Part shown: one piece after another, positions 929-19,875 of the stretch | Numbering within the stretch: the stretch's first letter is position 1 | Layout: every line of letters starts with the position of its first letter | Virus record (IMG/VR): IMGVR_UViG_3300032304_001354 | Span: 1-24,464 of that record | DNA from: a virus | Reading direction: 5' to 3' (one strand) | Length of the DNA stretch: 24,464 nt | The notes under the pieces: model-generated | Seen by the model: only the letters and a program-made list of their open reading frames with translations | Databases searched by the model: none | Told to the model about the DNA's origin: nothing | Position numbers and translations under genes: made by a program

Positions 929-3070
929 TTGAATAAACTCTTGCGTATATTTACGGTTTTATTACTTGCTTTTGGATGGTTATTTATAGCACCAACAGAG
1001 GCTAATTCTGACGACCCTCTAACAGTTGCAGCCCAAAAGATTCAAAACCTTAATAGTGCAGTAGATAAATTAGACTACAAAGACGGTTTAATAGGCATGA
1101 TTGACATAGCAGAGAACAAGTTTATGTATGCTAAAAATCTGCGGGATGTCAGAGATGCTGCTCAAGAAGACTACGAGGATGCAGTAGAAGCAGAGGAACT
1201 AGCCTTAGAAGAAGTAGACCTTGCCCAGTCCAATGTAGATGGCCAAACAGTAACAGTAGAACTTGCCCTTGACCACAAAGAAGATGCTCTTCAAGAAAAG
1301 AATGATGCACAGGATGCTCTTAACATAGCCAACATTAATCTTCAAACAGCCCAATCAAATATGCAGGGTGCTGGAGGATCAGGACTTGCTTATACAGTTT
1401 ATAACTTATTAAGAAATGGCAATCAAGCAGTACCAGGATCTGTTCTGTGTTCTGGTAATTGGAACTCAAACTCTATGCAACTTCCAGTTTGTGGAAACAG
1501 ATATGAAAACTTTATAGTTAAATTTACTGGACAGATAACAGTTCCAGAATGGTTCACATCAACAAAATTTGCAGGATATACAGATGATGGTTTTAGGATG
1601 TATATTGACGGAGCATTAGTTATTAATAACTGGGTTGAGCAAGGAGCAGGATGGAGTCAATACTCTCCAATATATGATGTAACTACAGATAAAACATTTG
1701 ATGTAGAAATTCGGTGGTATAACGGTGGGGGACCAGGATCTTATCATCTTGGATGGGGAATACCATATGATTCGTCTGGAAGTTTAGGTTGGACTGGTGC
1801 AGGTTGCGACTATGCTGGAAATCCAAGAGTGTGGGGACAAAACTTTAGTTGTAATCTTGATACATTTTCTTCTGGATCTGGACCAACACAAGCACAAACA
1901 GATGCTTACAATGAAGCACTTGCAACAAGAAATGCAGCACAGCAAGACTACAACAATGCTTTGTCAGAATATAATGACAAATTAAATGTTTATAACCAAG
2001 AGACTGCAACACTAAATTCATTAAATCAAATATTAACTAATAAAGAATCTGAGTATGATAACGCAGTAAATGATACAGCAGATGCTTTGTCTGAAAAGAA
2101 CAATGCCATAAATGATTTTAATAATGCAGTCAATGATGTCAATGGTGCAATTGATGACGCATGGCGTTACTATGATGAGCAATCACAAAGAGAAATTCAA
2201 AGAGCAATTGCTCAAGCAGCAGCCAATGCTGCAGCAAACCAGCCTAAGCCAGAGCCAAAGCCAACAGTTGAACCAGAAAAGCCAAAGCCTTCTCCACCAC
2301 CAACAGAAAAGCCTGAGCCAAAGCCAACAGTTGAACCAGAAAAGCCAAAGCCTTCTCCACCACCAACAGAAAAGCCTGAGCCAAAGCCAACAAAACCAGA
2401 AGAGCCTAAGCCTACACCTGCCCCAAGCCCTGAACCAAAGCCAGAGCCAACTCCAGAGCCTCCTGTTGAGCCTTCTCCAGAGCCTAAGCCACTTCCAAGA
2501 CCAGACTTTAAGCCAGCAGAAAACATTGATCCAGCAATTAAGGATACAGAGTTAGCAGCATTGATTCCACAAAAGGGTACAGGAAACTCAGAAGATTTAT
2601 CTGGAGTTATTGCAAACCTTACAAGCAAGGATAATAAATTAGTTAAACTTTCTGTAGAACAAACAGCAGCAGTAAGCCAAACACTTAAGTCTTTGACTCA
2701 AGAAGCAAAGCAAGAAGTTGCAGCAGACCTTGGAATTTCTACAGCAGAAGTTGCAAAGGTGGCAGAGGCAATGAAATCAGATCCTGCAGTTGCTGCAGCA
2801 TTTGTTGAGTTCGCAGATAGAGCAGGGGATGCAGGAGATACCCCAATGCCATTTACACTAGCAGACGCAACTACAGAAGTACAAACAGAAGAATTCTTAG
2901 CAGATCCACTTGGAGCAGTATTTGAAGTGGATGTTACAGAACTCCTATCCAATTTTTCTGAGTTGGGTATGGATATGACAGATGATCAGAGAGAAAAAGC
3001 GCAAGAAGTAATTGTCCCAGTGGTCATTGCATCACAAATTGCGGCATCAGTAATAAGGAGAAATAAATGA
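929..3070 (+). CDS. Secreted PA14-domain adhesin with coiled coils and a proline-rich stalk
   Basis: The 713-residue protein starts at TTG with a good Shine-Dalgarno 8 nt upstream. Residues 1-25 form a signal peptide (MNKLLRIFTVLLLAFGWLFI, then APTEA). Residues about 30-148 are an acidic Ala/Glu/Asp coiled coil. A PA14-like domain spans about 153-310 and includes the calcium/carbohydrate-site-like motif TDDGFRMYIDG (218-228) and cysteines 174, 188, 293 and 308, which may pair. A second coiled coil runs about 320-430. A Pro/Lys/Glu-rich stalk with 21-residue repeats runs about 440-530, followed by a mostly helical C-terminal region. There is no LPXTG motif or C-terminal membrane anchor. PA14 domains bind glycans in fungal and bacterial adhesins, so a fibre or host-binding role is inferred. 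The stop overlaps the next gene's start by 4 nt (ATGA). Confidence 0.8.
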   Translation: MNKLLRIFTVLLLAFGWLFIAPTEANSDDPLTVAAQKIQNLNSAVDKLDYKDGLIGMIDIAENKFMYAKNLRDVRDAAQEDYEDAVEAEELALEEVDLAQSNVDGQTVTVELALDHKEDALQEKNDAQDALNIANINLQTAQSNMQGAGGSGLAYTVYNLLRNGNQAVPGSVLCSGNWNSNSMQLPVCGNRYENFIVKFTGQITVPEWFTSTKFAGYTDDGFRMYIDGALVINNWVEQGAGWSQYSPIYDVTTDKTFDVEIRWYNGGGPGSYHLGWGIPYDSSGSLGWTGAGCDYAGNPRVWGQNFSCNLDTFSSGSGPTQAQTDAYNEALATRNAAQQDYNNALSEYNDKLNVYNQETATLNSLNQILTNKESEYDNAVNDTADALSEKNNAINDFNNAVNDVNGAIDDAWRYYDEQSQREIQRAIAQAAANAAANQPKPEPKPTVEPEKPKPSPPPTEKPEPKPTVEPEKPKPSPPPTEKPEPKPTKPEEPKPTPAPSPEPKPEPTPEPPVEPSPEPKPLPRPDFKPAENIDPAIKDTELAALIPQKGTGNSEDLSGVIANLTSKDNKLVKLSVEQTAAVSQTLKSLTQEAKQEVAADLGISTAEVAKVAEAMKSDPAVAAAFVEFADRAGDAGDTPMPFTLADATTEVQTEEFLADPLGAVFEVDVTELLSNFSELGMDMTDDQREKAQEVIVPVVIASQIAASVIRRNK
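2252..2393 (+). repeat. 63-bp in-frame tandem repeat coding the proline-rich stalk
   Basis: Two identical 63-bp units (2252-2314 and 2315-2377) plus a partial third (from 2378) encode a 21-residue unit beginning EPKPTVEPEKPKPSPPPTEK. Further degenerate EPKP repeats follow. The identity at DNA level indicates recent duplication, so stalk length is likely to vary by slippage or recombination. Confidence 0.95.
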
Positions 3071-8358: not shown

Positions 8359-8943
8359 ATGATAAAAGAAGGCGACTTTGTTATGGGCATGACATCTGAG
8401 GGTGTTGTGCATGGTGTTGTAGAGCATATTATGGTTGAGGGTGGAACACTAGGAACTCCTGGATCAGAGTATGCCCTTGAGTCAATGCCTCCAGAAAACC
8501 CAGCAATGTCTGTTAGAATTTATGAAGAAGAAGATGGCAAGTGGGACCCAACTGCATATAGTATTGGAATGATGTATAAGGATGCAAAAATTGCAGACAT
8601 AAATAATCACAACATGGAAGAGGATAGCGAAGAGATGGATTCAGAGGTTGCAATGGCAATGTATGATTCATCAATTGGAAAATCACAAGAAATGGAAGAA
8701 GAAATGGAAAAAGCAAAAAAGCCTAACTATGGTGAAATGATTCAGCCACGTCGTGGTGGCTCAACACCTTCTAACCCAAGACTTTATGCAAGAGTTGTAC
8801 AGGCAGCAAAAGATAAATTTGATGTGTACCCATCTGCAGTTGCAAACTCCTGGGTTGTTCAAGAATACAAGCGCCGTGGTGGAACATATAAATCTGAAAA
8901 AGAATTAGGATCAGATAATTTTTGGAATGGATTTTTAAAATAA
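8359..8943 (+). CDS. SH3-like N-terminal domain plus DUF5872-like C-terminal domain protein
   Basis: A 194-residue protein in three parts. Residues 1-80 look like a small beta-barrel (KEGDFVMGMTSEGVVHGVVE, then HIMVEGGTLGTPGSEYALES) of a kind often fused to phage capsid-protease-linked proteins. Residues about 85-125 are an acidic, Met/Glu-rich linker (EEDSEEMDSEVAMAMYDSSI). Residues about 135-194 match the DUF5872 pattern RLYARVVQAAKDKFDVYPSA, then VANSWVVQEYKRRGGTYK. DUF5872 is frequent in large phages and viruses, with unknown function. The message appears leaderless. Confidence 0.75.
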   Translation: MIKEGDFVMGMTSEGVVHGVVEHIMVEGGTLGTPGSEYALESMPPENPAMSVRIYEEEDGKWDPTAYSIGMMYKDAKIADINNHNMEEDSEEMDSEVAMAMYDSSIGKSQEMEEEMEKAKKPNYGEMIQPRRGGSTPSNPRLYARVVQAAKDKFDVYPSAVANSWVVQEYKRRGGTYKSEKELGSDNFWNGFLK

Positions 8944-9077
8944 TGCCAAAGAAAAAGTCACAATCATTTAATGCAACACAAATTAAAGACGGAAAGATTG
9001 TGCGAATGAATAAAAACGGTACAATTAAATCTATTCTTGGTCCATATGAAGTTAAGCATCCAAAGAAGGATAAGTAA
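8943..9077 (+). CDS. Small basic protein, 44 aa
   Basis: An ATG overlapping the previous stop (TAATG) opens a 44-codon frame that ends on a TAATG overlap with the next gene. The product is Lys-rich (MPKKKSQSFNATQIKDGKIV at the start, KHPKKDK at the end). The precise one-base overlaps on both sides are the main evidence that it is real. A nucleic-acid-binding role would fit its charge but is not shown. Confidence 0.75.
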   Translation: MPKKKSQSFNATQIKDGKIVRMNKNGTIKSILGPYEVKHPKKDK

Positions 9078-9445
9078 TGGCAGAGACATACTCACCTAAT
9101 GCAGGCATGAAGGCTGCAGCACGTCGTGCTTTAAAATGGAAAGAAGAAGGTAAGGCAACTGGTGCAGGAACTCCTGTAGGCTGGGGTAGAGCAACAGATA
9201 TTGTTAGTGGAGCATCTATGTCTCTTGATACTGTTAAAAGAATGTACTCTTTCTTTTCACGGCATGAAGTAGATAAAAAAGGCAAAGGATTTTATGATGG
9301 TCCAGAATTCCCATCAAATGGAAGAATAATGTGGGATGCATGGGGTGGAGATGCAGGTTTTACATGGAGTCGTGCTATAGTTGAGCGTGAAAAAAATAAA
9401 GCAGAAAAGGTTTGGCAAGGAAGTCCATTTAGTTTAAAGGAGTAA
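9077..9445 (+). CDS. Conserved phage-type protein with KRMYSFFSRHEVDK / GRIMWDAWGGDAG motif
   Basis: A 122-residue protein. The ordered motifs AAARRALKWKEEGKATGAGT, VGWGRATDIVSGASMS, TVKRMYSFFSRHEVDKKGKG and GRIMWDAWGGDAGFTWSRAI recall a domain I know from phage and prophage proteins, where it occurs alone or fused to capsid-protease or portal-region proteins. I cannot give it a function with confidence. Its pattern of conserved Arg, Lys, His and Trp suggests a helical nucleic-acid- or protein-binding module. It follows the 44-residue gene with a one-base overlap. Confidence 0.78.
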   Translation: MAETYSPNAGMKAAARRALKWKEEGKATGAGTPVGWGRATDIVSGASMSLDTVKRMYSFFSRHEVDKKGKGFYDGPEFPSNGRIMWDAWGGDAGFTWSRAIVEREKNKAEKVWQGSPFSLKE

Positions 9446-9447
9446 AT

Positions 9448-9834
9448 TTGAGTTATATCCTTATTGTGGGCTTGACATTGGTAGCCTTTTGCTTTATAAT
9501 TATAGTAATGAATAAAAAAAGAAAAAAATCTTTTAATAAAGTACTATATCGTCAAAGCGATATGCACAACATATTAAAAGAATTTTTCTTTAAAGACATT
9601 TTTGATGATAAGGTTGTTACATCTCAATCTAAAATATGGAAAGAGAAACAAACAACCAAAGTTGTAATAATAGATGAGAAAGCATATTGGGTGTCAAATA
9701 ACATGTTCTATGTCGGAGATGCTATAAACGGAAAGGTTCGTCCAGAAACTGGAAAGCCTTTAGATACAACCAAGATGTCAAAAAAAGAAATAGATAAACT
9801 ATTGTTTATTTTAGATAATTTAAAGGGGGAGTAA
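9448..9834 (+). CDS. Single-TM protein with an internal promoter and second start
   Basis: The 128-residue protein starts at TTG 9448 with a strong Shine-Dalgarno (AAAGGAG, 5 nt spacing). Residues 3-20 form a membrane helix (ILIVGLTLVAFCFIIIV), followed by a basic stretch (NKKRKKSF) that places the rest in the cytoplasm. The soluble part (KVVIIDEKAYWVSNNMFYVG and LDTTKMSKKEIDKLLFILDN) resembles small actinophage proteins of unknown function. Codons of the membrane helix contain a perfect promoter pointing at the in-frame ATG 9508 (residue 21). A leaderless message from there would make a 108-residue form without the membrane segment. Confidence 0.78.
   Translation: MSYILIVGLTLVAFCFIIIVMNKKRKKSFNKVLYRQSDMHNILKEFFFKDIFDDKVVTSQSKIWKEKQTTKVVIIDEKAYWVSNNMFYVGDAINGKVRPETGKPLDTTKMSKKEIDKLLFILDNLKGE
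9472..9500 (+). promoter_or_regulatory. Perfect consensus promoter inside a coding region
   Basis: TTGACA (9472-9477), 17-bp spacer, TATAAT (9495-9500): both hexamers match the sigma-70/sigma-A consensus exactly. The in-frame ATG at 9508 lies 7 nt after the -10, so the transcript could begin at that start codon. Confidence 0.75.
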
Positions 9835-10457
9835 TGTATATATCAGAAAAACCAATTCAACCAACAAACATCTATGCTGGATGCATTGCAGAATATGAAA
9901 ACATATGGGATGAAGAAAAAACTAAAAAGTATATTGAAGATATTGAGTCTGCAATAGATGATCGTGAGTCTGGAATTATTTTTAATAAAGCCGTTTCTTT
10001 TAATCATGGGGATCCAAATAATTTATATTATAATGAGCACAGAACTAACTATAATCTTGGTTTAACTGATAGCGCAAAGGTTAATGAGTCTTTTAGAATA
10101 ATTCATAATGATTTTTATTTAAAATCAATTGCTGCACTTTCATCATATTGTTCTATTTTTGACATTAAAGAAGAAATAAAATTTGTTGAACAAATCAACT
10201 TGTTGAGGTATCAAGGTGGACAACGTTATGATGCACACTATGACGGTGGGACAACAAGTGGTAGGTCCGTTTCTCCAATACTTTATATAAACGAAGATTA
10301 TTCTGGAGGAGAACTTGAGTTTGTTAACTTTAACCTAAAGATTAAACCAAAGTCAGGATCTTTATATTTATTTCCATCAAACTATGCATATAGACATATT
10401 GCACATCCAGTAACTTCTGGTACAAAGTATGCAATTGTTACATGGCTTCACGACTAA
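9834..10457 (+). CDS. 2-oxoglutarate/Fe(II)-dependent dioxygenase, prolyl-4-hydroxylase type
   Basis: The 207-residue protein has a C-terminal double-stranded beta-helix. INLLRYQGGQRYDAHYDGG gives the iron ligands His135 and Asp137. SPILYINEDYSGGELEFV is the conserved P4H strand pair. The distal His is His188 in YRHIAHPV, followed by VTSGTKYAIVTWLHD, in which Lys198 replaces the usual Arg that binds 2-oxoglutarate (Lys does this in animal P4H). The family hydroxylates proline or other residues in proteins. The N-terminal half is family-variable. Phage P4H-like enzymes are known but their substrates mostly are not. A GlcNAc-type transferase lies about 1.4 kb downstream and a proline-rich adhesin upstream, both candidate pathway partners. 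Confidence 0.92.
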   Translation: MYISEKPIQPTNIYAGCIAEYENIWDEEKTKKYIEDIESAIDDRESGIIFNKAVSFNHGDPNNLYYNEHRTNYNLGLTDSAKVNESFRIIHNDFYLKSIAALSSYCSIFDIKEEIKFVEQINLLRYQGGQRYDAHYDGGTTSGRSVSPILYINEDYSGGELEFVNFNLKIKPKSGSLYLFPSNYAYRHIAHPVTSGTKYAIVTWLHD

Positions 10458-10470
10458 AAGGAGAGTTATT

Positions 10471-10752
10471 ATGGAAAACACAAAAGAACTAGAGTTGTTT
10501 AAGTATTATCAAAAAAAATCAATTGAGTTAGAGTTATCAAATTTAATTCTTCAAATGAAACATGCTGATGAATTGCAAATTCAAAAAGAAGCATTTCAAA
10601 AAGAATTAGAAAAAATAAGAAATAAGTTTGAAGAAGATAAAGAAAATTTAATTAAAAACTTTACTAAAAAAAATAATACTGTTGAAAAGAAAACAAGAAC
10701 AATAAAGAAAAAGGCGGAAAAGTTAAATGATAGTCGCAGTACAGGGAAGTAG
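10471..10752 (+). CDS. Small coiled-coil protein
   Basis: A 93-residue protein starting at ATG 10471, behind the Shine-Dalgarno AAAAGGAGAG. An in-frame TTG-type start further upstream would overlap the oxygenase and is unlikely. Nearly the whole chain is charged helix with heptad spacing (ELQIQKEAFQKELEKIRNKF), ending in a Lys-rich tail (KKTRTIKKKAEKL). No family is recognised. The last 26 nt overlap the next gene. Confidence 0.72.
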   Translation: MENTKELELFKYYQKKSIELELSNLILQMKHADELQIQKEAFQKELEKIRNKFEEDKENLIKNFTKKNNTVEKKTRTIKKKAEKLNDSRSTGK

Positions 10753-11077
10753 TGAGTTTGACGACTATAATCTATTTCTTCGTGCAATAAGCGTTGCTTT
10801 ATCTGGAATGAAAGAAGAAGAAAAAGATTTTATAATCTATTCTGTTGGTCCAAACAAAGTTAACTCTTTTGTTTCAGAGTTTTCAAACCTTTCAGAAAGA
10901 GGAATGAAAGCCAGGGGTCGTAAGATAAAGTTTTATAAAGTTCCAGAAAGTTGGGTACATGACAACATGGATCAAGTAAACTATTTTGCATTTCTTAGCA
11001 AACCAAAAGAGCCAGTATCTAAACTAACCACTTTTGCAGAATCAAAAAATGTAGAAGTAGGAATATTCCGTTACTAA
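10727..11077 (+). CDS. Possible SLOG/DUF2493-like Rossmann-type protein
   Basis: A 116-residue protein starting MIVAVQGSSEFDDYNLFLRA. The first strand, Gly-rich turn and FDDY recall DUF2493/SLOG proteins (V-x-G-x-R-x-F-x-D-Y), which bind nucleotide-like ligands. The usual Arg of GGRDF is missing (GSSEF), so the match is weak. The remainder alternates strand and helix (DFIIYSVGPNKVNSF, KIKFYKVPESWV), consistent with a small Rossmann fold. It overlaps the coiled-coil gene by 26 nt. Confidence 0.6.
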   Translation: MIVAVQGSSEFDDYNLFLRAISVALSGMKEEEKDFIIYSVGPNKVNSFVSEFSNLSERGMKARGRKIKFYKVPESWVHDNMDQVNYFAFLSKPKEPVSKLTTFAESKNVEVGIFRY

Positions 11078-11090
11078 AAGAAAGAATACA

Positions 11091-11300
11091 ATGATAATTA
11101 ATTCGTTAGAGCATATGGAAAAAATTGTTTCAAAGAATAAGGAACTTGCATGGATAGGCTGGGACGTTGTAGAGCGTAAAAGATCAGACCTTGCAAGAAC
11201 ATCTCCAAGTGGAGTACGTGTAAAAAATGCATGGTATCTACAAAAAACCTTTAACCTTAATCGTAATGGTTGGGATATTCCAAACAAATACGGTCAGTAA
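11091..11300 (+). CDS. Small phage-type protein of unknown function
   Basis: A 69-residue protein with LAWIGWDVVERKRSDLARTS, then KNAWYLQKTFNLNRNGWDIP. This Trp/Asn-rich pattern resembles small proteins I associate with actinophage genomes, function unknown. ATG 11091 is followed by a second in-frame ATG at 11115; the first has a moderate Shine-Dalgarno (AAAAGAAAGA). It abuts the WhiB-like gene. Confidence 0.72.
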   Translation: MIINSLEHMEKIVSKNKELAWIGWDVVERKRSDLARTSPSGVRVKNAWYLQKTFNLNRNGWDIPNKYGQ

Positions 11301-11585
11301 ATGAAGCAACATTTATGGAAAGATGAGGCAGCATGTCTTGGTCTTGATACTAATATATTTTTTGATAAGTATGAAGACAATGTAGACGTACGCCCAATAG
11401 TTGATTCAATGTGTCAAAGATGTCCAGTTTCAAAGATCTGTTTTGCTAATGGAGTTTCTGGTAAAGAATATGGTGTGTGGGGTGGGGTATTTCTTGAACT
11501 TGGGAATATATCTAGAGAGTTTAACAAACACAAAACCAAGCAAGACTGGGCTAATACCTGGCAAGCATTGACAATGGAGAAGTAG
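11301..11585 (+). CDS. WhiB-like [4Fe-4S] transcription regulator
   Basis: The 94-residue protein has the four cluster cysteines in Wbl order: Cys12 in AACLG, Cys38 and Cys41 in CQRCPVSKIC, and Cys47. These are followed by the signature turn GVWGG (58-62), which contacts sigma-A in host WhiB proteins. WLEWKDEA-like and FF motifs at the N-terminus (LWKDEAACLGLDTNIFF) also fit. The C-terminal tail is less basic than in DNA-binding Wbl proteins. WhiB proteins are confined to actinobacteria and their phages, so this is the best host marker in the window. Phage versions can act as dominant regulators of host sporulation or division genes (WhiBTM4 is the precedent). The ATG directly follows the previous stop. 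Confidence 0.92.
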   Translation: MKQHLWKDEAACLGLDTNIFFDKYEDNVDVRPIVDSMCQRCPVSKICFANGVSGKEYGVWGGVFLELGNISREFNKHKTKQDWANTWQALTMEK

Positions 11586-11816
11586 TTGTATACAGATCAA
11601 ATGCGTAGAGCCTTTCACTCTGTAAGTCCTCCAAAAGGATTTACTATAGAGTTAATTGATAATGAGCATTTTTTAACTATTAAGTTAAACGAACATAAAT
11701 TTTCAAAAATGGTTCATGACGATAAAATTGAGGCCCTTCAATATGTTTTAAACTTGAAGAAAGCATTGGAGATGGAAGGCGCAATTGTATTGGTTACAAG
11801 AGAGGCCGTAAAGTGA
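11586..11816 (+). CDS. Small protein of unknown function
   Basis: A 76-residue protein starting at TTG immediately after the WhiB-like stop. It contains KGFTIELIDNEHFLTIKLNE, then ALQYVLNLKKALEMEGAIVL, a beta-beta-alpha pattern. No family is recognised. The contiguous reading (stop, then start) and the 4-nt GTGA overlap with the next gene support translation by coupling. Confidence 0.7.
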   Translation: MYTDQMRRAFHSVSPPKGFTIELIDNEHFLTIKLNEHKFSKMVHDDKIEALQYVLNLKKALEMEGAIVLVTREAVK

Positions 11817-12727
11817 GAATCTTTATATCTATTGCCTCATATCGTGATCCAGAACTTCAGTGGACAATTAAAAGCGCTATTGAAAATGCTAATAATCCAG
11901 ACAACTTATACTTTGGCGTTGTTCATCAAGGAGTTGATTCAGAACTATTTGATATTCAAACAATTAAAAACATGTCTTTAATTAAGATGCATCCAAAAGA
12001 AGCAAAAGGTGCAGGATATGCAAGAGCAAAAGCAATGGAACTGTACTCTGGACAAGAGTATTTCCTTCAAATTGATTCACATACAAGGTTTGCTCCTGGC
12101 TGGGACTTAATTTGTATTGATCAGTTAAACAGGGCTAAAAATATATCTGGTCATAGTCGTGTATTGTTGTCATACTTTCCTGCCCCGTTTGAACCTGAAA
12201 GAAATGGAGGTATGTTTTTAGTAAAAAATAACCCAAAGATAAAAGACTATCCAACTAGACAAAGAATATTATTAAATAAAAGGAAACAGTGGACAGCAGA
12301 AAGATTTGAGTTTGATAGTAAACTAAAAGAAAACCCAGAACTTTCTCAAACAGTTCTTGGTGGCTTTATGTTTTCAGATGGATCAATAGTTAACGAAATA
12401 CCTTATGATCCAGAGATTAGTTTCTTTGGTGAAGAGATTTGTTTTGCCATGAGATCATGGACAAGAGGGTGGGACATATACTCTCCTTCAAAAAATATTG
12501 TTTATCATTTTTATTCTCGTGGTGGATATAGTAAGATATGGAAAGACAGAAATTTACGTGGCATGTCTTGGAAAGAAATAGAAGAGATCTCTTATAGTAA
12601 ACAAAAAAGAGTTCTTTGTGGCGAAGAAGAAGGAGTTTTTGGTGCTGGAAACATTAGAACACTTGCCGAGTATGAGATCTTTACTAATACTAACTTTAAA
12701 GATTTTTATAGTTTGACAAAGCCTTAG
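11813..12727 (+). CDS. GlcNAc-transferase family (Skp1 GnT-like, PF11397-type) glycosyltransferase
   Basis: The 304-residue protein starts at GTG on a GTGA overlap. It is a GT-A fold with IFISIASYRDPEL at the N-terminus, KGAGYARAKAMELYSGQEYF, then LQIDSHTRF (Asp88 and His90 as the metal/sugar-nucleotide motif), and FFGEEICFAMRSWTRGWDIY later. These are the hallmarks of the family named after Dictyostelium Skp1 polypeptide GlcNAc-transferase, which adds GlcNAc to hydroxyproline. Bacterial and phage members are common but mostly uncharacterised; the acceptor here is unknown. The proximity of a prolyl-hydroxylase-like gene is notable. The family could equally act on a glycan. Confidence 0.88.
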   Translation: MRIFISIASYRDPELQWTIKSAIENANNPDNLYFGVVHQGVDSELFDIQTIKNMSLIKMHPKEAKGAGYARAKAMELYSGQEYFLQIDSHTRFAPGWDLICIDQLNRAKNISGHSRVLLSYFPAPFEPERNGGMFLVKNNPKIKDYPTRQRILLNKRKQWTAERFEFDSKLKENPELSQTVLGGFMFSDGSIVNEIPYDPEISFFGEEICFAMRSWTRGWDIYSPSKNIVYHFYSRGGYSKIWKDRNLRGMSWKEIEEISYSKQKRVLCGEEEGVFGAGNIRTLAEYEIFTNTNFKDFYSLTKP

Positions 12728-12747: not shown

Positions 12748-13197
12748 ATGTGGAGTGGTGATATGAAAGATATTTTTATTGTTGTTTTTGCAACATTGTC
12801 AGTTTGTTTTGCAGCCTCATACATTTTGGTTTTAAAGCAATCTATTAAACTTAAAAGAGATGTTTCAAAACTTTTTATTGAAAAAACTTTGCTTCAAGAA
12901 TATGCTGATCTAACTAAGTCCACAAAAATAAAAGAAGATTCAGATGACTCAATACACAAAGAAAACTTTATTAAGTTTCTTTCTGATTCTAGGCTGTGGG
13001 CATTTGAATATATTGAGAATGTGCAAAAAGGTTTAACTAAGTTTGTTAATGATGTTGATGCAGACATATCATACTTTGATGAATACGGAGAAGCGTTGTC
13101 CATGTCAAGACCAGACTATCCGTCTATGAAGAATATTTCAAAGGCATACAAAGAATTAAAAACACTACTTCCAGAAGAGGGCATAGATGAAAAATAA
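12748..13197 (+). CDS. Membrane-anchored small protein
   Basis: A 149-residue protein with an N-terminal membrane helix (residues about 8-29, IFIVVFATLSVCFAASYILV), then a charged helical cytoplasmic part (KQSIKLKRDVSKLFIEKTLL) and a conserved-looking segment DSRLWAFEYIENVQKGLTKF. Similar TM-plus-coil proteins are frequent in actinophages; the function is unknown. A leaderless start at 12748 is favoured by the perfect promoter. ATG 12763 (residue 6), with GGAGTGG upstream, is an alternative. The end overlaps the next gene by 11 nt. Confidence 0.78.
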   Translation: MWSGDMKDIFIVVFATLSVCFAASYILVLKQSIKLKRDVSKLFIEKTLLQEYADLTKSTKIKEDSDDSIHKENFIKFLSDSRLWAFEYIENVQKGLTKFVNDVDADISYFDEYGEALSMSRPDYPSMKNISKAYKELKTLLPEEGIDEK

Positions 13198-13903
13198 AAA
13201 GGTTACATTTATTCCTGGAACAAAAGACTCACAACTTTTAGTAGAGTCTCCAAAACCATCAAAAAGATATATTCCTGAATGGTTTAAAGACATGCCACAA
13301 GAAAAAACAAATATATATAACACTGGAACAGATAAAACTGCAAAGTTATGTATGCCATTTTTAGACTCAATTAGTTGCGGATACATACAAGAATTACCAT
13401 GTGATTTAAAAATAATAAATAATGGAATAGATGATGATGGAAATGACATAATATCTTATAGATGGTTTGGTGGAATTCAACCATGCTCTACTAGAAGAGA
13501 AGAATTTGGATCTCAAAATATGCTACCAAATTTTGATGGGTACTATACATCAGAGTTTCATTGGATAACTAACTGGGAACCAAAAACTCCAGATGGATAT
13601 AGCACTATGTATCACCATCCATCAAACAGACTTGATTTACCATTTCATACGCTTACTGGAATTATAGATACAGACAAATGGTCTATTACTGGACCTTTGC
13701 CATTTTTTATTAAAAGGGGTTTTGAAGGAATTATTCCTGCAGGAACACCAATATATCAAATTACATTTGTAAAAAGAGAAAATTGGGTTTCAGAAAAAGA
13801 AAATTATGATGAAGACTTTCAAAAAAAACATCTTCAAAATGCTAAAAAACTTAGTTGGGGTGGATATAAAAAATTTTATTGGAATAGAAAAAGTTTTGAA
13901 TAA
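13187..13903 (+). CDS. Phage protein of unknown function, first of a tandem paralog pair
   Basis: A 238-residue protein. The scaffold VTFIPGTKDSQLLVESPKPS, then RYIPEWFKDMP, LCMPFLDSISCGYIQELPCD, NRLDLPFHTLTGIIDTDKW and LPFFIKRGFEGIIPAGTPIY, recurs in the next gene and in uncharacterised proteins of other large phages; it resembles the DUF6065 type. The alternating beta pattern with conserved His, Pro and aromatic residues suggests a jelly-roll or cupin-like fold. No catalytic motif can be assigned. It sits in the same plus-strand run as the 2OG oxygenase and the GlcNAc-transferase. Confidence 0.78.
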   Translation: MKNKKVTFIPGTKDSQLLVESPKPSKRYIPEWFKDMPQEKTNIYNTGTDKTAKLCMPFLDSISCGYIQELPCDLKIINNGIDDDGNDIISYRWFGGIQPCSTRREEFGSQNMLPNFDGYYTSEFHWITNWEPKTPDGYSTMYHHPSNRLDLPFHTLTGIIDTDKWSITGPLPFFIKRGFEGIIPAGTPIYQITFVKRENWVSEKENYDEDFQKKHLQNAKKLSWGGYKKFYWNRKSFE

Positions 13904-13912
13904 ATATATATT

Positions 13913-14614
13913 ATGAAAAAAATATACTTTATACCACAAACAGAACTTGCACAAGAGGTTATTGATCCGCCTAAACCAGCAAAAAACTTTATTCCTGAAT
14001 GGTATAAAAAATTACCAAGAAAAATGAATAAAAATCTTTTGTGGAGAAACCCAAATGGTTCATCAAATAGATCAATGAAAGCATGCGTTCCAGTTATGGA
14101 TACACTAACTTCAGGATATATAATTACAACTTCTGCTGATATATATGTTAATCAAAACATTGAATATGAGCATAAATTTATGTGGGAAGTAAGCAGAACA
14201 TTGATAACAACACATATAAAAGAGCAGTATGGAGAAATGCCTGTTCCAGATGGATATGAAAAAGATCCTTTTAAATGGGAAACTGACTGGATTATAAAAA
14301 CTCCAAAAGGATTTAGTCTTTTATTTTCTCATCCATCATATCGTTTTGATCTTCCTTTTATTACTTTTACTGGAATAGTTGATGCTGATAAATATAATAT
14401 GGCATTAAACCTGCCATTCTTTTTAAAAGAAGGATTTGAAGGTTTAATTCCAAAAGGAACTCCTATTGCTCAGGTTATGCCAATTAAAAGAGAATCTTGG
14501 AAATCTTCAACAAAAAAATATTCCCCAAAACAAAAATATAATTTAGAAAAAATAAAGAGTATTATAGATAGATCATATAAAAAAACATTTTGGCAAAAAA
14601 AGGAGTACTTATAA
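13913..14614 (+). CDS. Phage protein of unknown function, second of a tandem paralog pair
   Basis: A 233-residue paralog of the preceding protein. YFIPQTELAQEVIDPPKPAK, NFIPEWYKKLPR, ACVPVMDTLTSGYIITTSAD, YRFDLPFITFTGIVDADKY and LPFFLKEGFEGLIPKGTPIA match its motifs one for one. Divergence is high outside these blocks, so the duplication is old. The C-terminus differs (Lys-rich, ending FWQKKEYL). There is no Shine-Dalgarno; the start lies 9 nt after the previous stop in a very AT-rich gap. Confidence 0.78.
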   Translation: MKKIYFIPQTELAQEVIDPPKPAKNFIPEWYKKLPRKMNKNLLWRNPNGSSNRSMKACVPVMDTLTSGYIITTSADIYVNQNIEYEHKFMWEVSRTLITTHIKEQYGEMPVPDGYEKDPFKWETDWIIKTPKGFSLLFSHPSYRFDLPFITFTGIVDADKYNMALNLPFFLKEGFEGLIPKGTPIAQVMPIKRESWKSSTKKYSPKQKYNLEKIKSIIDRSYKKTFWQKKEYL

Positions 14615-15115: not shown

Positions 15116-16150
15116 TTACGAGTTAATTAAGTTTATGTATTTATCTTTTAATGACTCTGTTGAAAAATTAATAAAGCCAAGATCAAATGCTTCTTGTTTG
15201 ATTAGATTATTTTTCTTTTCCATGTATTCGTCAACTATTTTTGCAAGGGTTTTTGGATCAATATCATATACATCAATAACAGCCTTAGCCTTAAATTCAT
15301 CAATCTTGCTTGCCTTTACCGTCCATTTATCAGGAAGGATGGCATTGTTTGGAGAAATGCGGGGCATAAAAACAGGTAGCCCACTAAGAAGAGCCTCATT
15401 CATAGGTAAACATAATCCAGCATACCTTCTAGGTAATACCATTGCATCATAGCCAGAGTATAAATCTTCTGGTTCTTTTGTTGTATTAGTCTGGATAGTT
15501 AGTCTTTCATTAGTATTTCTAATACCTAAATCAGTTTGAGTTTTAATTACAACTTCGTAATCTCCTGTAGAATACTTAAGCATTTCTATTACAGAATTAG
15601 TACCGTTTCTATCTTTAACTGCAGCCTTGCCACCAATATGTAATATACGATTATGGTTCTTTGACATATTATTTTCTTTTGCATTATTAAAGTTTTCGTG
15701 GTTTGTTGGTGGGGGTAGATAAACAACCTTACATTTATCACCAAAACGTTCAACTATCTTATCCATATTCCATAGGCTTGGGGCAACAAGAACGTCTGGA
15801 AGTGACCACTCTGTATGCACAAGGTTTCCAAAGAACTCATAGTTATATTGAAGTATTGTCTTAACTCCACGAGATCTTGCTATATCAATAAATCTTGGAC
15901 TATAAAATGTCTCACAACTAATAACTACGTCAACATCTGTAATAAAATTTGCTATCTCAGCAGTTGTTGGAAAACCTTTTAGTGTAGCAGTATAGTTATA
16001 TCCATCATACCAGTCAAAATGTTGTTTATTTTGATTAAAGAACCTTGAATTAATAAGCATAATTTTATCAGGGTTTAGCATATTTACTAATTCCCTGGTT
16101 TGATTACCAAGACCAGTATCATCACATCTTGCAATTATTCCAACTCTCAT
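15116..16150 (-). CDS. GT-B glycosyltransferase (family 4-like), last gene of glycan operon
   Basis: A 344-residue protein with a two-domain GT-B layout. The N-terminus VGIIARCDDTGLGNQTRELV has the Gly-rich acceptor-domain loop. The C-terminal domain contains ILHIGGKAAVKDRNGTNSVI and PRRYAGLCLPMNEALLSGLP, the E-x7-E-like nucleotide-sugar region of GT1/GT4 enzymes. The sugar and acceptor cannot be told from sequence. It starts on a 4-nt overlap with the upstream gene, indicating coupled translation. Confidence 0.85.
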   Translation of the reverse strand: MRVGIIARCDDTGLGNQTRELVNMLNPDKIMLINSRFFNQNKQHFDWYDGYNYTATLKGFPTTAEIANFITDVDVVISCETFYSPRFIDIARSRGVKTILQYNYEFFGNLVHTEWSLPDVLVAPSLWNMDKIVERFGDKCKVVYLPPPTNHENFNNAKENNMSKNHNRILHIGGKAAVKDRNGTNSVIEMLKYSTGDYEVVIKTQTDLGIRNTNERLTIQTNTTKEPEDLYSGYDAMVLPRRYAGLCLPMNEALLSGLPVFMPRISPNNAILPDKWTVKASKIDEFKAKAVIDVYDIDPKTLAKIVDEYMEKKNNLIKQEAFDLGFINFSTESLKDKYINLINS

Positions 16151-16908
16151 TCAGAATACCCCCAAGTAAGATCATCACTAGTATACTTTCTTGTACCCTG
16201 ACGACCATCTAAATGATATGATCTTTTTATGTTTCCTTCTGGATGGTATATCCATAATTTATGCTTATTCCATCCATCCTCAGAGAATACACCGTATGGA
16301 GAAATATCATCTTGAACTCTTCCGTGTGTAGTATCTTCAATAAAAGCAAAATCTTCTACTTCTGGAAGAATAACTTTTCTATAGTATTCAACAGTAGATA
16401 GATGTGGCCTTTGACTCCACTGAGATGTTTTCATAAATCCATCCTCTAATCCAAACATCAAATGATTATGAGGTTCAGGTATTGATGACTCAAAATGAAA
16501 TCTAATTGTATTTGCTTTTCCATACTCAATCATATCTAAACATTTGTCCCAATCAATCTCAACATCGGGTGTAAGTGGAGCATCTCCTTCAACATAAAGA
16601 AGGCAAGGTGTATTTATAAGATTGATAGTCTGCTTTAGCATTGTGCTTTGATGGCTATGCTTATTAAATATAATTGGCAAAACATTTTTATATTGGTGAA
16701 GACACTTCCATAAAATTCTATTTTTGTATTCATCATAATCTTGTTTGCGATGCAACTGTTCTGATCTTAATCCATCAATTTGCATTATAATTTCATTATT
16801 AGGAAAGTGATGCCTAATAGATTTAATAGTTTCATCTATCATGTCTGTACTTGGGTGCCCTGGAATTATTGATGTTGCAAGAATAATAGTTACATCTCTT
16901 TTATGCAT
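16147..16908 (-). CDS. GT-A-like glycosyltransferase
   Basis: The 253-residue protein begins RDVTIILATSIIPGHPSTDM, the first Rossmann-like strand and nucleotide-binding loop of GT2-type enzymes. A metal-site motif LLYVEGDAPLTPDVEIDW (EGD in place of the usual DxD) follows near residue 105. A C-terminal region has HGRVQDDISPYGVFSEDG and YHLDGRQGTRKYTSDD. The family assignment is by fold pattern only. It overlaps the next gene by 4 nt and the previous by 8 nt within the operon. Confidence 0.78.
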   Translation of the reverse strand: MHKRDVTIILATSIIPGHPSTDMIDETIKSIRHHFPNNEIIMQIDGLRSEQLHRKQDYDEYKNRILWKCLHQYKNVLPIIFNKHSHQSTMLKQTINLINTPCLLYVEGDAPLTPDVEIDWDKCLDMIEYGKANTIRFHFESSIPEPHNHLMFGLEDGFMKTSQWSQRPHLSTVEYYRKVILPEVEDFAFIEDTTHGRVQDDISPYGVFSEDGWNKHKLWIYHPEGNIKRSYHLDGRQGTRKYTSDDLTWGYSE

Positions 16909-17749
16909 TTATCTGCCTCATAATCTTAATTCCTAGATCTCTTTTTTGTTTGATCCACCAACATACTACTTGGTGCATATTATTTGGATACTGATCTAAT
17001 AGTTTTGGAACTAATTTATTAAGTTCATTCCAATTTGATACATAGTTAAATGGAACATTAACTCCAAACATGTTTTTATAAAAATCTGTCTGTATTCCTT
17101 TTGGATTTATTGTATCTGCTACTGGCAACGTTAATAACTCTATTGACTCAAAAAATCTAAATGTATCTATTACTGCTGCACCAGATGGACATGGTGCAAT
17201 TTTTGCACTTGCAAGTTTGGCATAGTAGTCTTTTGGCTTATCTCCTTGTGAAAAGCCTGCAGTTGGTCCATATAAAGAATTCTTTAGGGTTGGCATAACA
17301 TGAGATAACTCTATCCTTCTTTGGTGAGTAATCTGTCCACCAAAGTAAACATCGTATTCTTTTTCTTTGTATTCTGGAGAATTATCACTTAAGTGCTGTG
17401 GAACACCAATTGGCATTTTATTATATGCTGCATGTTTTTTATGAGGGTATTGAATCCATATCTCAATATTTGGATGATTAATTTTATCTACATCAAACCT
17501 AGCATTCTCATCTCCATTAATAAATAAAACAACTCTAGAGATTTTACTTAATTCCTTAGATAGTCTATCCTCATTTCCAGCAGTTTGTGGTCCAGGGATT
17601 ACAACAAATGCTCTATCACTTTCTGGAATCTTTGTAACTTTTATTTGATTAATTTCGTACTTATCAAATATTTCTTTTATTAATCCATAGTCCCATTTAT
17701 CATTTGCATAATCTTTTCCATCATGAGAGTAAAGGTATGCATTAATCAT
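16901..17749 (-). CDS. Exostosin-like GT-B glycosyltransferase
   Basis: A 282-residue protein. The C-terminal donor-site segment LASAKIAPCPSGAAVIDTFR, then FFESIELLTLPVA, matches exostosin/GT47- or CgeB-like GT-B enzymes, in which a Pro-x-Gly loop and a helix with E-S/A bind the nucleotide sugar. The preceding EKEYDVYFGGQITHQRRIEL is the typical inter-domain strand (the YDVxFxGxxTHxRR pattern). The N-terminal acceptor domain is divergent. The donor and acceptor are unknown. It overlaps the methyltransferase gene by 4 nt. Confidence 0.8.
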   Translation of the reverse strand: MINAYLYSHDGKDYANDKWDYGLIKEIFDKYEINQIKVTKIPESDRAFVVIPGPQTAGNEDRLSKELSKISRVVLFINGDENARFDVDKINHPNIEIWIQYPHKKHAAYNKMPIGVPQHLSDNSPEYKEKEYDVYFGGQITHQRRIELSHVMPTLKNSLYGPTAGFSQGDKPKDYYAKLASAKIAPCPSGAAVIDTFRFFESIELLTLPVADTINPKGIQTDFYKNMFGVNVPFNYVSNWNELNKLVPKLLDQYPNNMHQVVCWWIKQKRDLGIKIMRQINA

Positions 17750-18312
17750 TTAGTACCCCTAACAAACATCCATTGAGGGTGCATGTGATCTGTAAATATT
17801 AGGCTATTAAACCCAGTATTTTTTAATATGTTTTCAATTTCAAACCTTGATGTTTGATAAGAGTATGGAGAGTTTTCCTCTCCAATAACAAACTGAAAGA
17901 ATAAAATACCACCATCTTTTAAATTATCATATGCAAGTTTTATGTAGTTAATCTTTTCTTGGTGCTCAATATGTTGAAAGACCAACATTGAGTATACTAA
18001 ATCAAGATTGTTTCCAACTTCTTGATACTTTATATTATCTCTCTTAGGTGCAAGGTTTATCATTTCATCAGAGATATCTAATCCGTAAAAATTACATTCA
18101 TCATACTTGTCTGCTAAAGGAACTAACAGTCTCCCTATACCACATCCAATTTCTAAAACATTATTCCAATTATCATTATTATTTTCTATAAGATTTAAAA
18201 ATGTTTCAGTAGATGCCCACTCATCTGCAATATATTTATACCTTACATCTGGATCTTTAGCAGCGTTATCCCAAAAAATTTTAGATTGATTCATAGTATA
18301 AGTGAACCTCAT
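17746..18312 (-). CDS. Class I SAM-dependent methyltransferase
   Basis: A 188-residue protein with motif I VLEIGCGIGRLLVPLAD (52-68), motif II FYGLDISDEMINLA, and motif IV/post-I DLVYSMLVFQHIEH, the standard order of the Methyltransf_11/25 group. Small size and context suggest O- or N-methylation of a sugar or peptide in the glycan pathway; the substrate is unknown. The ATG at 18312 overlaps the FkbM gene by 32 nt. ATG 18294 (residue 7) would reduce this to 14 nt and is a possible alternative. Confidence 0.88.
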   Translation of the reverse strand: MRFTYTMNQSKIFWDNAAKDPDVRYKYIADEWASTETFLNLIENNNDNWNNVLEIGCGIGRLLVPLADKYDECNFYGLDISDEMINLAPKRDNIKYQEVGNNLDLVYSMLVFQHIEHQEKINYIKLAYDNLKDGGILFFQFVIGEENSPYSYQTSRFEIENILKNTGFNSLIFTDHMHPQWMFVRGTK

Positions 18313-18994
18313 GCTGATAGTCTAAAATTATTTCAGTATAACCTAATCCCTTAATCCATTGTCTAAGATTATATAAAGATTCATTCCATTGCTGTAACAT
18401 AAACTCAGGGTGTCCAGATAGCCAAATCTTTGGTTTGTGCTCTCTAAGGACCTTCTCAGCCCCTCCTAGGACCCTCCACTCACTGCCCTCTACGTCCAAT
18501 GAAATGGCGGTAGGTGGCTTAATCCCGTGATCATATACACAAGAATCTATAGTAATCTGACCATAGGATTCTCCTTCAAGGTATAGTTCTTTGAATCCGT
18601 GGGCTGCTTCAATTACGTTGTTAACTTCTGGTGGCCATTCATTATAATATATTCTTGAAAGATTATTTATCTTATCAGATGCAAATCCAGGAATACAAAC
18701 CATTGGAAGATCTAGATTGTTTGCACTCCAAAGCAATGGAAAGTGTGACCAGACTTTAGGGTTTGGTTCAAATACAACTACTTCCGCACCCCACATTTGA
18801 CATAGTGCAGCAAACTCGCCTTCTTCTGCACCAACATAGTACATAACATCTCCAGAAGAAATATTTTCAGACATGTGTCTTAGTCTTGGTTTTTCCCAAC
18901 CTTTAGGTTCGTACCATTCAGGGCGAGCAGCACGATGATCTGGCAAAGTAATCTCAAACTCACCATTAACTATTACTTTTTTCATCTCTGTCAT
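18281..18994 (-). CDS. FkbM-family methyltransferase
   Basis: I place the start at ATG 18994, which forms a 4-nt ATGA overlap with the epimerase stop, as at other junctions of this operon; ATG 19033 in the same frame would overlap by 43 nt. SAM-site features are DVMYYVGAEEGEFAALCQMW and EVVVFEPNPKVWSHF. The signature AISLDVEGSEWRVLGGAEKV (the DxEGxE motif) is diagnostic of FkbM enzymes. The family O-methylates sugars and other hydroxyls and is frequent in polysaccharide and glycopeptidolipid clusters. Confidence 0.9.
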   Translation of the reverse strand: MTEMKKVIVNGEFEITLPDHRAARPEWYEPKGWEKPRLRHMSENISSGDVMYYVGAEEGEFAALCQMWGAEVVVFEPNPKVWSHFPLLWSANNLDLPMVCIPGFASDKINNLSRIYYNEWPPEVNNVIEAAHGFKELYLEGESYGQITIDSCVYDHGIKPPTAISLDVEGSEWRVLGGAEKVLREHKPKIWLSGHPEFMLQQWNESLYNLRQWIKGLGYTEIILDYQHEVHLYYESI

Positions 18995-19875
18995 TTCTGC
19001 AACCAGTCTATTAATGATACTTTTGGTGTCCATCCAGTTAAACCTTTAAACTTTTCATTAGACGCAAGAGTTTCTTGCACCTCACCAATTCTTGACGGGA
19101 TAAACTTAACATCATTTGAAATCATATTAGCAATATCAATTATAGAATAGTTACTTCCATACCCAATGTTATACACCTCACCAAAGCCATGACTTACTTC
19201 AGATGCAAGGATGTTTGCTTCCACTACATCAGATATGTGTGTAAAGTCTCTGCTCTGAGATCCATCTCCAACAACTGTTAAAGGTTTTCCTTCATGGTAT
19301 TGTTTTAAAAATAGTCCTATTACTGGTGCATACTGACCCTTTAGTGGCTGTCTATCTCCATAAACATTAAAGTATCTAAGTGATATAGTCTCAAGACCGT
19401 AAAGATTATAATAAACTCTTGCAAGGTTTTCACCAAATACCTTTGCAGCAGAGTATGGTGTTAGTGGGTCAGATCCCTGCGTTTCTATGTTTGGAAGTAT
19501 TGCTTTCTTACCATATGCAGATGATGTACTAGAATAAATAAACTTTTTTACTTTTGCCAAGCGAGATAGTTCTAATACGTTAGCAGTTCCAACTGCATTA
19601 GACTCAATAGATTTTCTAGGGTTTAATATTGCTGGTTGAATTCTTGCATCAGATGCAATGTGGAATACATAGTCAACTCCATTAAATAAATGTTCTATCT
19701 GTTCATAATCACATATATCATACTTATAATTATTTGCTTTTGGGTTCCAGTAAAATTGATCATGACACTCTGCTGACTCATTATCTATACAGATAACACT
19801 ATGCCCAAGATCTATAAGTTTATCAACAAGATTAGAACCAATAAAACCAGCACCGCCAGTAACTAAACAATTCAT
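18991..19875 (-). CDS. NAD-dependent sugar-nucleotide epimerase/dehydratase (GalE-like extended SDR)
   Basis: The 294-residue protein has the NAD-binding GGAGFIG (7-13), an acidic adenosine-ribose residue (ICIDNESAE), the active-site SSTSSAYG (115-122), and the catalytic YSAAK pair Tyr141/Lys145, followed by LRYFNVYGDRQ and SRDFTHISDVVEANI. This is a complete extended short-chain dehydrogenase of the UDP-hexose 4-epimerase group. It is slightly shorter than GalE (about 335). It would make or convert the nucleotide sugar used by the neighbouring transferases. It overlaps the upstream gene by 4 nt. Confidence 0.93.
   Translation of the reverse strand: MNCLVTGGAGFIGSNLVDKLIDLGHSVICIDNESAECHDQFYWNPKANNYKYDICDYEQIEHLFNGVDYVFHIASDARIQPAILNPRKSIESNAVGTANVLELSRLAKVKKFIYSSTSSAYGKKAILPNIETQGSDPLTPYSAAKVFGENLARVYYNLYGLETISLRYFNVYGDRQPLKGQYAPVIGLFLKQYHEGKPLTVVGDGSQSRDFTHISDVVEANILASEVSHGFGEVYNIGYGSNYSIIDIANMISNDVKFIPSRIGEVQETLASNEKFKGLTGWTPKVSLIDWLQK

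What the first reader, a model, noticed from the sequence alone, without database searches (positions are those of the whole stretch)
9834..12727. Possible phage prolyl-hydroxylation plus GlcNAc-transfer pathway, with a proline-rich adhesin as candidate substrate
A P4H-type 2OG-Fe(II) oxygenase (ligands His135, Asp137, His188) lies about 1.4 kb from a glycosyltransferase with the LQIDSHTRF motif of the Skp1 GnT family. In Dictyostelium the two enzyme types act in sequence: P4H makes hydroxyproline on Skp1 and the GnT adds GlcNAc to it. The same window encodes a secreted PA14 adhesin (929-3070) with a repetitive Pro/Lys/Glu stalk that would be an obvious hydroxyproline-type substrate. A paired phage system of this kind would be new to me. 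The motifs are seen directly; the pathway link is inference.
Basis: partly seen in the sequence, partly recalled or inferred. Interest (0 to 1): 0.75.

Follow-up and report, generated by a model that had tools for sequence, protein, structure and literature searches.

The report
Phage tail hydroxylation–glycosylation cassette, found nearby
The two enzymes flagged here are real but show no sign of working as a pair in this virus; related viruses, however, carry a linked set of genes that probably hydroxylates and glycosylates proline- and threonine-rich tail proteins, which would explain why so many phages encode prolyl-hydroxylase-like genes.

Summary
In detail: a P4H-type 2OG oxygenase (9834-10457), a PF11397 glycosyltransferase (11813-12727) and a PA14 protein with a Pro-rich stalk (929-3070). 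The proposed pathway does not hold for these three genes. The oxygenase sits in a slot that is empty in 98 of 99 distinct syntenic relatives (53 with the GT in view), whereas the GT is conserved. Among 49 phages with the adhesin, oxygenase and GT co-occur exactly as chance predicts (8 seen, 8.1 expected). The nearest full relative (105 kb) has GT and stalk but no such oxygenase. Following the lead elsewhere paid off. A sister oxygenase family lies directly downstream of a (TP)n/(APTPV)n tail protein in 62 of 66 testable loci (0 of 67 for the window's type), often with a PF11397 GT. In 61 homologous tail loci, the oxygenase is present in 17 of 21 with Pro-rich repeats and in 1 of 40 without. 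Loci with (TTTTAAP)n repeats carry the GT but no oxygenase. Two bacterial proteins fuse GT and oxygenase domains. The modelled GT resembles mucin-type polypeptide GalNAc-transferases. I infer a swappable phage tail-decoration cassette; modification itself is untested.

The parts
9834..10457 (+). P4H-type 2OG-Fe(II) oxygenase (window type); sporadic insertion
   Evidence: PF13640 4.9e-16; His135/Asp137/His188/Lys198; AF2 + Foldseek prolyl hydroxylase fold; slot empty in 98/99 distinct relatives
10471..10752 (+). small hypothetical ORF that lies with the oxygenase in the same inserted stretch (start at 10471 by its ribosome-binding-like GGAG; the ORF listing gives 10429)
   Evidence: absent from the relatives tabulated
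9448..9834 (+). left border of the slot (hypothetical, 128 aa), conserved
   Evidence: 80-90% identical in relatives, directly followed by the 10727-11077 homologue after 4-16 bp
10727..11077 (+). right border of the slot (hypothetical, 116 aa), conserved
11301..11585 (+). WhiB-like regulator; points to an actinobacterial host
   Evidence: PF02467 1.5e-11
11813..12727 (+). PF11397 glycosyltransferase with DSH motif; conserved gene of this phage group
   Evidence: PF11397 1.4e-57; 156 relatives, best 98% identical; fold matches polypeptide GalNAc-transferases
929..3070 (+). PA14 protein with Pro/Lys/Glu stalk; conserved gene of this phage group, not tied to the oxygenase
   Evidence: PF07691 3.1e-7; 453 relatives; stalk kept in records without PF13640

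Best explanation
In the window, the oxygenase and the GT are unrelated residents of a moron-rich late region of an actinophage-like genome. The oxygenase is a sporadic P4H-fold enzyme with an unknown protein substrate; the GT is a conserved polypeptide-glycosyltransferase-like enzyme with an unknown target. In relatives of this phage, and in other phages, genes of the same two superfamilies form a real unit in the tail locus: a tail protein carrying (TP)n, (APTPV)n or (TTTTAAP)n repeats, followed by a P4H-like oxygenase where the repeats are Pro-rich and often by a PF11397 GT, sometimes with other GTs, sugar-nucleotide enzymes or a radical SAM protein. I infer that after synthesis of the tail protein the oxygenase hydroxylates repeat prolines and the GT adds a HexNAc to repeat Thr and/or hydroxyproline, giving a stiff, mucin- or arabinogalactan-like decorated tail. 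SHOWN: gene order, co-presence and co-absence, domain families, predicted folds, gene fusions in bacteria. INFERRED: substrate, order of steps, sugar, acceptor residue, benefit to the phage.
For: Window: slot empty in 98/99 distinct relatives; GT 75-98% identical in the best 80 relatives versus at most 70% for the oxygenase; 4/36 GT records have PF13640 and 8/50 oxygenase records have PF11397; 49 adhesin records: 33 PF13640+, 12 PF11397+, 8 both. Cassette: first seen in L317, where a (TP)n tail protein is followed by the oxygenase, which overlaps a PF11397 GT; 62/66 versus 0/67 loci with a Pro-rich gene upstream, 39/43 versus 0/44 after 90% clustering (p 1e-20), GT within 1.5 kb 18/43 versus 0/44 (p 3e-7); homologous tail loci 17/21 versus 1/40 (p 2e-10), 8/11 versus 1/22 non-redundant (p 1e-4); an independent version with a classical P4H (3.7e-28 to B. 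anthracis P4H) 28 bp after a (TP)n gene and then a PF11397 GT (L394); GT+oxygenase fusions in two bacterial MAGs; GT fold matches ppGalNAc-transferases.
Against: The association could come from whole tail-tip modules being swapped together: only 3-4 independent contrasts exist on the tree, too few for a sign test. About half of the cassettes lack a PF11397 GT. Within the (TP)8 scan alone, GT proximity is not beyond chance (p 0.38 and 0.31) and oxygenase proximity is modest (p 0.02). The cassette family differs from proven prolyl hydroxylases over most of its length (E 0.0013) and has Arg where P4Hs have Lys. No chemical evidence exists. L027 and the window do have oxygenase and GT in the same stretch.
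Confidence: 0.72

Rival explanations
1. One reading: in this phage the P4H hydroxylates the Pro-rich stalk of the PA14 protein and the GT then adds GlcNAc to hydroxyproline.
For: All three genes lie within 12 kb; both enzymes have intact motifs; the stalk resembles XP-repeat P4H substrates; PF13640 and PF11397 can act in one pathway (fusions; Skp1 pathway, PMC6939170).
Against: Slot empty in 98/99 relatives; chance co-occurrence; G001 keeps a 90% identical adhesin and 96-97% identical GT without any PF13640 gene in 105 kb; no signal peptide was noticed on either enzyme, while the adhesin looks exported.
Confidence: 0.06
2. The cassette genes travel together only because tail-tip modules are exchanged as blocks; the oxygenase acts on something else (host protein, another tail protein, a small molecule).
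For: The tail locus is modular and swaps as a unit; some genomes have up to 8 PF13640 genes, most not beside Pro-rich proteins; cyanophage 2OG genes sit beside varied genes.
Against: Within one tail-locus family, repeat chemistry and enzyme content switch together (L634 versus L619, Pro-rich with oxygenase versus Pro-poor without); the L394 version uses a different P4H and a different tail protein; GT-oxygenase fusions exist.
Confidence: 0.2
3. Parallel rather than sequential modification (a variant of the best explanation): the GT glycosylates Thr as in mucins, and the oxygenase hydroxylates Pro independently.
For: GT fold is closest to polypeptide GalNAc-transferases; GT present without the oxygenase in five Pro-poor tail loci (L613, L615, L616, L618, L619), of which L616, read in full, has (TTTTAAP)n repeats; GT60 includes the T. 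cruzi mucin-type enzyme (PMC8724618).
Against: GT-P4H fusions in bacteria and the Pythium dual-function enzyme cited in PMC8724618 favour a coupled Hyp pathway.
Confidence: 0.4

Closest known systems
Skp1 prolyl hydroxylation/GlcNAc pathway (PhyA + Gnt1, CAZy GT60) of Dictyostelium, Toxoplasma and Pythium
   Same: P4H-fold oxygenase plus PF11397 (GT60-related) glycosyltransferase; fused in a plant-pathogenic oomycete (cited in PMC8724618) and in two bacterial MAGs here
   Different: One proline on a cytoplasmic regulator versus many repeat residues on a phage tail protein; the window's own pair is not linked at all
PBCV-1 (chlorovirus) prolyl 4-hydroxylase vCPH
   Same: Virus-encoded P4H; closest solved fold to the window enzyme (5c5t); hydroxyproline in viral proteins was reported (Eriksson 1999, cited in PMC9301287; that its substrates are (PAPK)n repeats is from memory)
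   Different: Virus of algae; no PF11397 partner or tail-protein gene cassette known to me
Mucin-type O-glycosylation (ppGalNAcT GT27; T. cruzi pp-alphaGlcNAcT GT60)
   Same: GT fold and DSH motif; Thr/Pro-rich repeats like (TTTTAAP)n and (TP)n as likely targets
   Different: No lectin domain; encoded in phage tail loci; often beside a P4H-like oxygenase
Plant and algal extensin/arabinogalactan Hyp-glycosylation
   Same: (Ser/Thr/Ala-Pro)n repeats hydroxylated by P4H, then glycosylated; algal P4H bound to (Ser-Pro)5 is a fold match (3gze)
   Different: Secretory pathway of eukaryotes and other glycosyltransferase families

Membership tests
P4H-type 2OG-Fe(II) oxygenase (window 9834-10457) | HxD...H iron triad and a basic 2OG-binding residue at distal His+10 | tested here: met
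   His135, Asp137, His188 invariant; Lys198
P4H-type 2OG-Fe(II) oxygenase (window 9834-10457) | Double-stranded beta-helix closest to prolyl hydroxylases | tested here: met
   Foldseek top: 5c5t, PHD2, 3gze
P4H-type 2OG-Fe(II) oxygenase (window 9834-10457) | Hydroxylates peptidyl proline | not testable with these tools
   needs an enzyme assay
PF11397 / GT60-related glycosyltransferase (window 11813-12727) | Profile match and DSH metal motif | tested here: met
   1.4e-57; Asp88 and His90 invariant
PF11397 / GT60-related glycosyltransferase (window 11813-12727) | GT-A fold of polypeptide HexNAc-transferases | tested here: met
   50 of 50 listed Foldseek hits are ppGalNAc-transferases
PF11397 / GT60-related glycosyltransferase (window 11813-12727) | Transfers GlcNAc to hydroxyproline | not testable with these tools
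   needs an assay
Skp1-like P4H + GnT pathway (window genes) | Both enzymes present together across relatives | tested here: not met
   98/99 empty slots; 8 co-occurrences versus 8.1 expected
Skp1-like P4H + GnT pathway (window genes) | Pro-rich stalk tied to the oxygenase | tested here: not met
   stalk kept in G001 without PF13640
Phage tail-repeat decoration cassette (defined here from L317, L322, L451-L529) | Pro-rich tail protein directly upstream of the oxygenase on the same strand | tested here: not met
   none in the window within 6 kb; 0/67 window-type loci versus 62/66 cassette-type loci

The most novel reading that the evidence does not exclude
Bacteriophages of lakes and other waters carry an exchangeable tail-tip cassette that makes hydroxyproline in (TP)n/(AP)n repeats and adds sugar to it through a GT60-type enzyme: a Skp1- or extensin-like hydroxyproline glycosylation system working on phage tails, shared with bacterial GT-P4H fusion proteins. 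Relatives of the window's phage (G006, G002, G108) carry versions of the cassette.
Probability: 0.3. Interest if true: 0.88.

Novelty: new variant of a known kind. Interest (0 to 1): 0.7.

Why it matters
P4H-like genes are among the abundant 'auxiliary metabolic genes' reported in viromes, and a recent survey says that how viruses use them 'remains cryptic' (PMC9301287). A match between repeat chemistry and enzyme content gives a concrete, testable answer: they modify the virion. It would bring mucin- or extensin-like post-translational modification into bacteriophage tails, a new way for phages to vary their surface.

Tried and rejected
Window P4H-GT-adhesin pathway: rejected on co-occurrence and synteny. 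Isolated phages: PF11397 in XacN1, CM1 and RAS14; in XacN1 and RAS14, the two whose surroundings I read, it lies in a non-tail region (beside a carbamoyltransferase in XacN1) with no oxygenase annotated near. P4H-like genes of Erwinia Y3, Salmonella Sen-NF, Microcystis Mel-JY01 and Synechococcus S-H9-1 show no Pro-rich neighbour among the annotated products (their proteins were not scanned for repeats). Cassette-type oxygenase in the genome-contig collection of bacterial and archaeal genomes: none found. Scanning for (TP)8 DNA alone gave only a modest signal, because most phage (TP)n proteins have no oxygenase beside them. A strict (XP)7 filter missed (APTPV)n repeats; reading the upstream genes fixed this. 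Tree-based independent contrasts: same direction but too few. Literature searches found no description of a phage hydroxyproline-glycan system, but the library lacks most subscription journals.
Full report
What is in the window. The record is a 24,464-base virus fragment. ORF 9834-10457 is a 2OG-Fe(II) oxygenase (PF13640 E 4.9e-16) whose iron ligands His135, Asp137 and His188 are invariant in 31 relatives, with Lys198 at the P4H position for 2OG binding. Its predicted structure (pLDDT 93.9) is closest to the PBCV-1 viral prolyl hydroxylase, to PHD2 and to algal P4H with a (Ser-Pro)5 peptide. ORF 11813-12727 is a PF11397 glycosyltransferase (E 1.4e-57) with the DSH motif. Its predicted structure (pLDDT 91.1) matches polypeptide GalNAc-transferases in all 50 listed Foldseek hits. 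ORF 929-3070 has a PA14 domain and a Pro-rich stalk. A WhiB gene (11301-11585) points to an actinobacterial host.

The window's pair is not a unit. The GT is a conserved gene: 156 relatives were found, up to 98% identical, in the order WhiB-76 aa-GT-149 aa in most relatives tabulated. The oxygenase has no relative above 70%. In 98 of 99 distinct relatives that hold both neighbours of the oxygenase, these neighbours are 4-16 bp apart and the slot is empty; 53 of the 98 have the GT in view. Only L027 has an oxygenase there. At record level, 4 of 36 GT records contain PF13640 (none in the 105,870-, 105,135- and 100,390-base records) and 8 of 50 oxygenase records contain PF11397. Among 49 records chosen by the PA14 adhesin, 33 have PF13640, 12 have PF11397 and 8 have both; independence predicts 8.1. 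Record G001 keeps a 90% identical adhesin and a 96-97% identical GT without any PF13640 gene in 105 kb. Records are fragments, so absence in one record is weak; the empty-slot test does not suffer from this.

A real cassette elsewhere. Record G108 (locus L317), another adhesin-bearing phage, has a 668-aa protein with very long (TP)n and (AP)n repeats, then (after a small Cys-rich ORF) a PF13640 oxygenase, then a PF11397 GT whose start overlaps the end of the oxygenase gene. The repeat protein matches virion and tail families, and neighbouring genes match tail fibre and baseplate families. Record G006, which also carries the window-type GT, has a (TP)n protein, the oxygenase, a second protein that by eye resembles a 2OG oxygenase, two proteins that by eye resemble fucosyltransferases, and a GDP-mannose dehydratase-type gene. 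A (TP)8 DNA scan found more cases: L357, L365, L368, L394 and L398.

How tight is the link? Relatives of the L317-type oxygenase (80 loci) were compared with window-type relatives (80 loci). With at least 1.5 kb of upstream room, a Pro-rich gene lies within 2 kb upstream on the same strand in 62 of 66 versus 0 of 67, and a PF11397 GT within 2 kb in 27 of 66 versus 0 of 67. After clustering at 90% identity the numbers are 39/43 versus 0/44 and, for a GT within 1.5 kb, 18/43 versus 0/44. The repeats include (TP)n, (APTPV)n and (PPAPT)n-like forms.

A test inside one locus. The N-terminal domain of the repeat protein defines a family of tail loci with and without repeats. In 61 such loci with enough sequence downstream, the oxygenase is present in 17 of 21 with Pro-rich repeats and in 1 of 40 without (p 1.8e-10); non-redundant, 8 of 11 versus 1 of 22 (p 1e-4). 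The four Pro-rich loci without an oxygenase all have a PF11397 GT. Five Pro-poor loci also have the GT; the one I read in full, L616 (the same contig as L009, a close relative of the window), has mucin-like (TTTTAAP)n repeats with a radical SAM gene, the GT and an epimerase-like gene. So the oxygenase follows proline-rich repeats, while the GT occurs with Thr/Pro-rich repeats with or without the oxygenase. On a tree of a neighbouring tail gene the changes go the same way, but only three or four independent contrasts exist, which is too few for significance. Exchange of whole modules remains a possible cause.

Independent support. L394 has a different, classical P4H (3.7e-28 to B. anthracis P4H and 2.8e-16 to Chlamydomonas P4H) 28 bp after a (TP)n gene and followed by a PF11397 GT. 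In bacterial genomes, 8 of 80 PF11397 loci have a 2OG oxygenase within 2 kb, and in two cases the domains are fused: a 641-aa ORF in a Burkholderiales MAG (GT 20-325, P4H 520-631) and a 2009-aa ORF in a Rickettsiales MAG (four GT domains, a redoxin domain and 2OG domains). A dual-function P4H/GlcNAc-transferase is known from a plant-pathogenic oomycete (van der Wel 2019, cited in PMC8724618).

Mechanism. Shown: families, motifs, folds, gene order, co-presence. Inferred: the cassette oxygenase hydroxylates repeat prolines of the tail protein; the GT adds HexNAc to Thr and/or hydroxyproline. The fold and the GT-only Pro-poor loci favour Thr; the fusions and the Skp1 precedent (PMC6939170) favour hydroxyproline; both may occur. 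The (APTPV)n/(TP)n chemistry resembles algal P4H substrates. For the window's own enzymes I commit only to this: a prolyl-hydroxylase-fold enzyme and a polypeptide HexNAc-transferase-fold enzyme, each with an unknown protein target, acting separately.

Known or new. Virus-encoded P4H is known from chloroviruses, and P4H-like genes are listed as virus auxiliary genes whose use 'remains cryptic' (PMC9301287). I found no description of a phage tail cassette of this kind in the open library. I rate it a new variant of a known kind: known enzyme chemistries, apparently a new setting and a new repeat-matched gene cassette. The interest score is for the cassette to which the finding led; the window's own pair would score about 0.15.

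Noticed in passing
window 13187-13903 and 13913-14614 (+): Two paralogues of phrog_7084 (one weakly DUF6065) follow the GT; similar proteins recur beside GT and 2OG genes in other loci (by eye in L326 and in G001 8613-9326). Function unknown; their steady company suggests part of a modification toolkit.
   Followed up: no
window 15116-20828 (-): Minus-strand cluster of glycosyltransferase-like, methyltransferase-like, FkbM-like and epimerase-like genes (most named by eye), conserved with the GT in relatives; one protein weakly resembles RXYLT1. The methyltransferase and the neighbouring carbamoyltransferase are variable.
   Followed up: partly
L451-L529, between Pro-rich gene and oxygenase: An about 80-aa Cys-rich protein (CxxCPELIKLTxQCKKCGCFMxxKTKLxxATCPLGKW) sits between the repeat protein and the oxygenase in nearly all cassettes read; in L374 and L633 it is fused to the N-terminus of the PF11397 GT.
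   Followed up: partly
L616 10289-11302 (+): A radical SAM/SPASM-like protein stands between the (TTTTAAP)n tail protein and the GT; the L660 locus has a similar gene after its oxygenase. A further modification enzyme in the same cassettes.
   Followed up: partly
L724 1072-2994; L774 3997-10023: Bacterial PF11397-P4H fusion proteins (Burkholderiales and Rickettsiales MAGs); in three SAR86-type loci the two genes are head to head.
   Followed up: partly
window 929-3070: The PA14 protein has a signal-peptide-like start and ends in a hydrophobic stretch followed by RRNK, unusual for a phage structural protein; it may be a surface protein made in the host.
   Followed up: no
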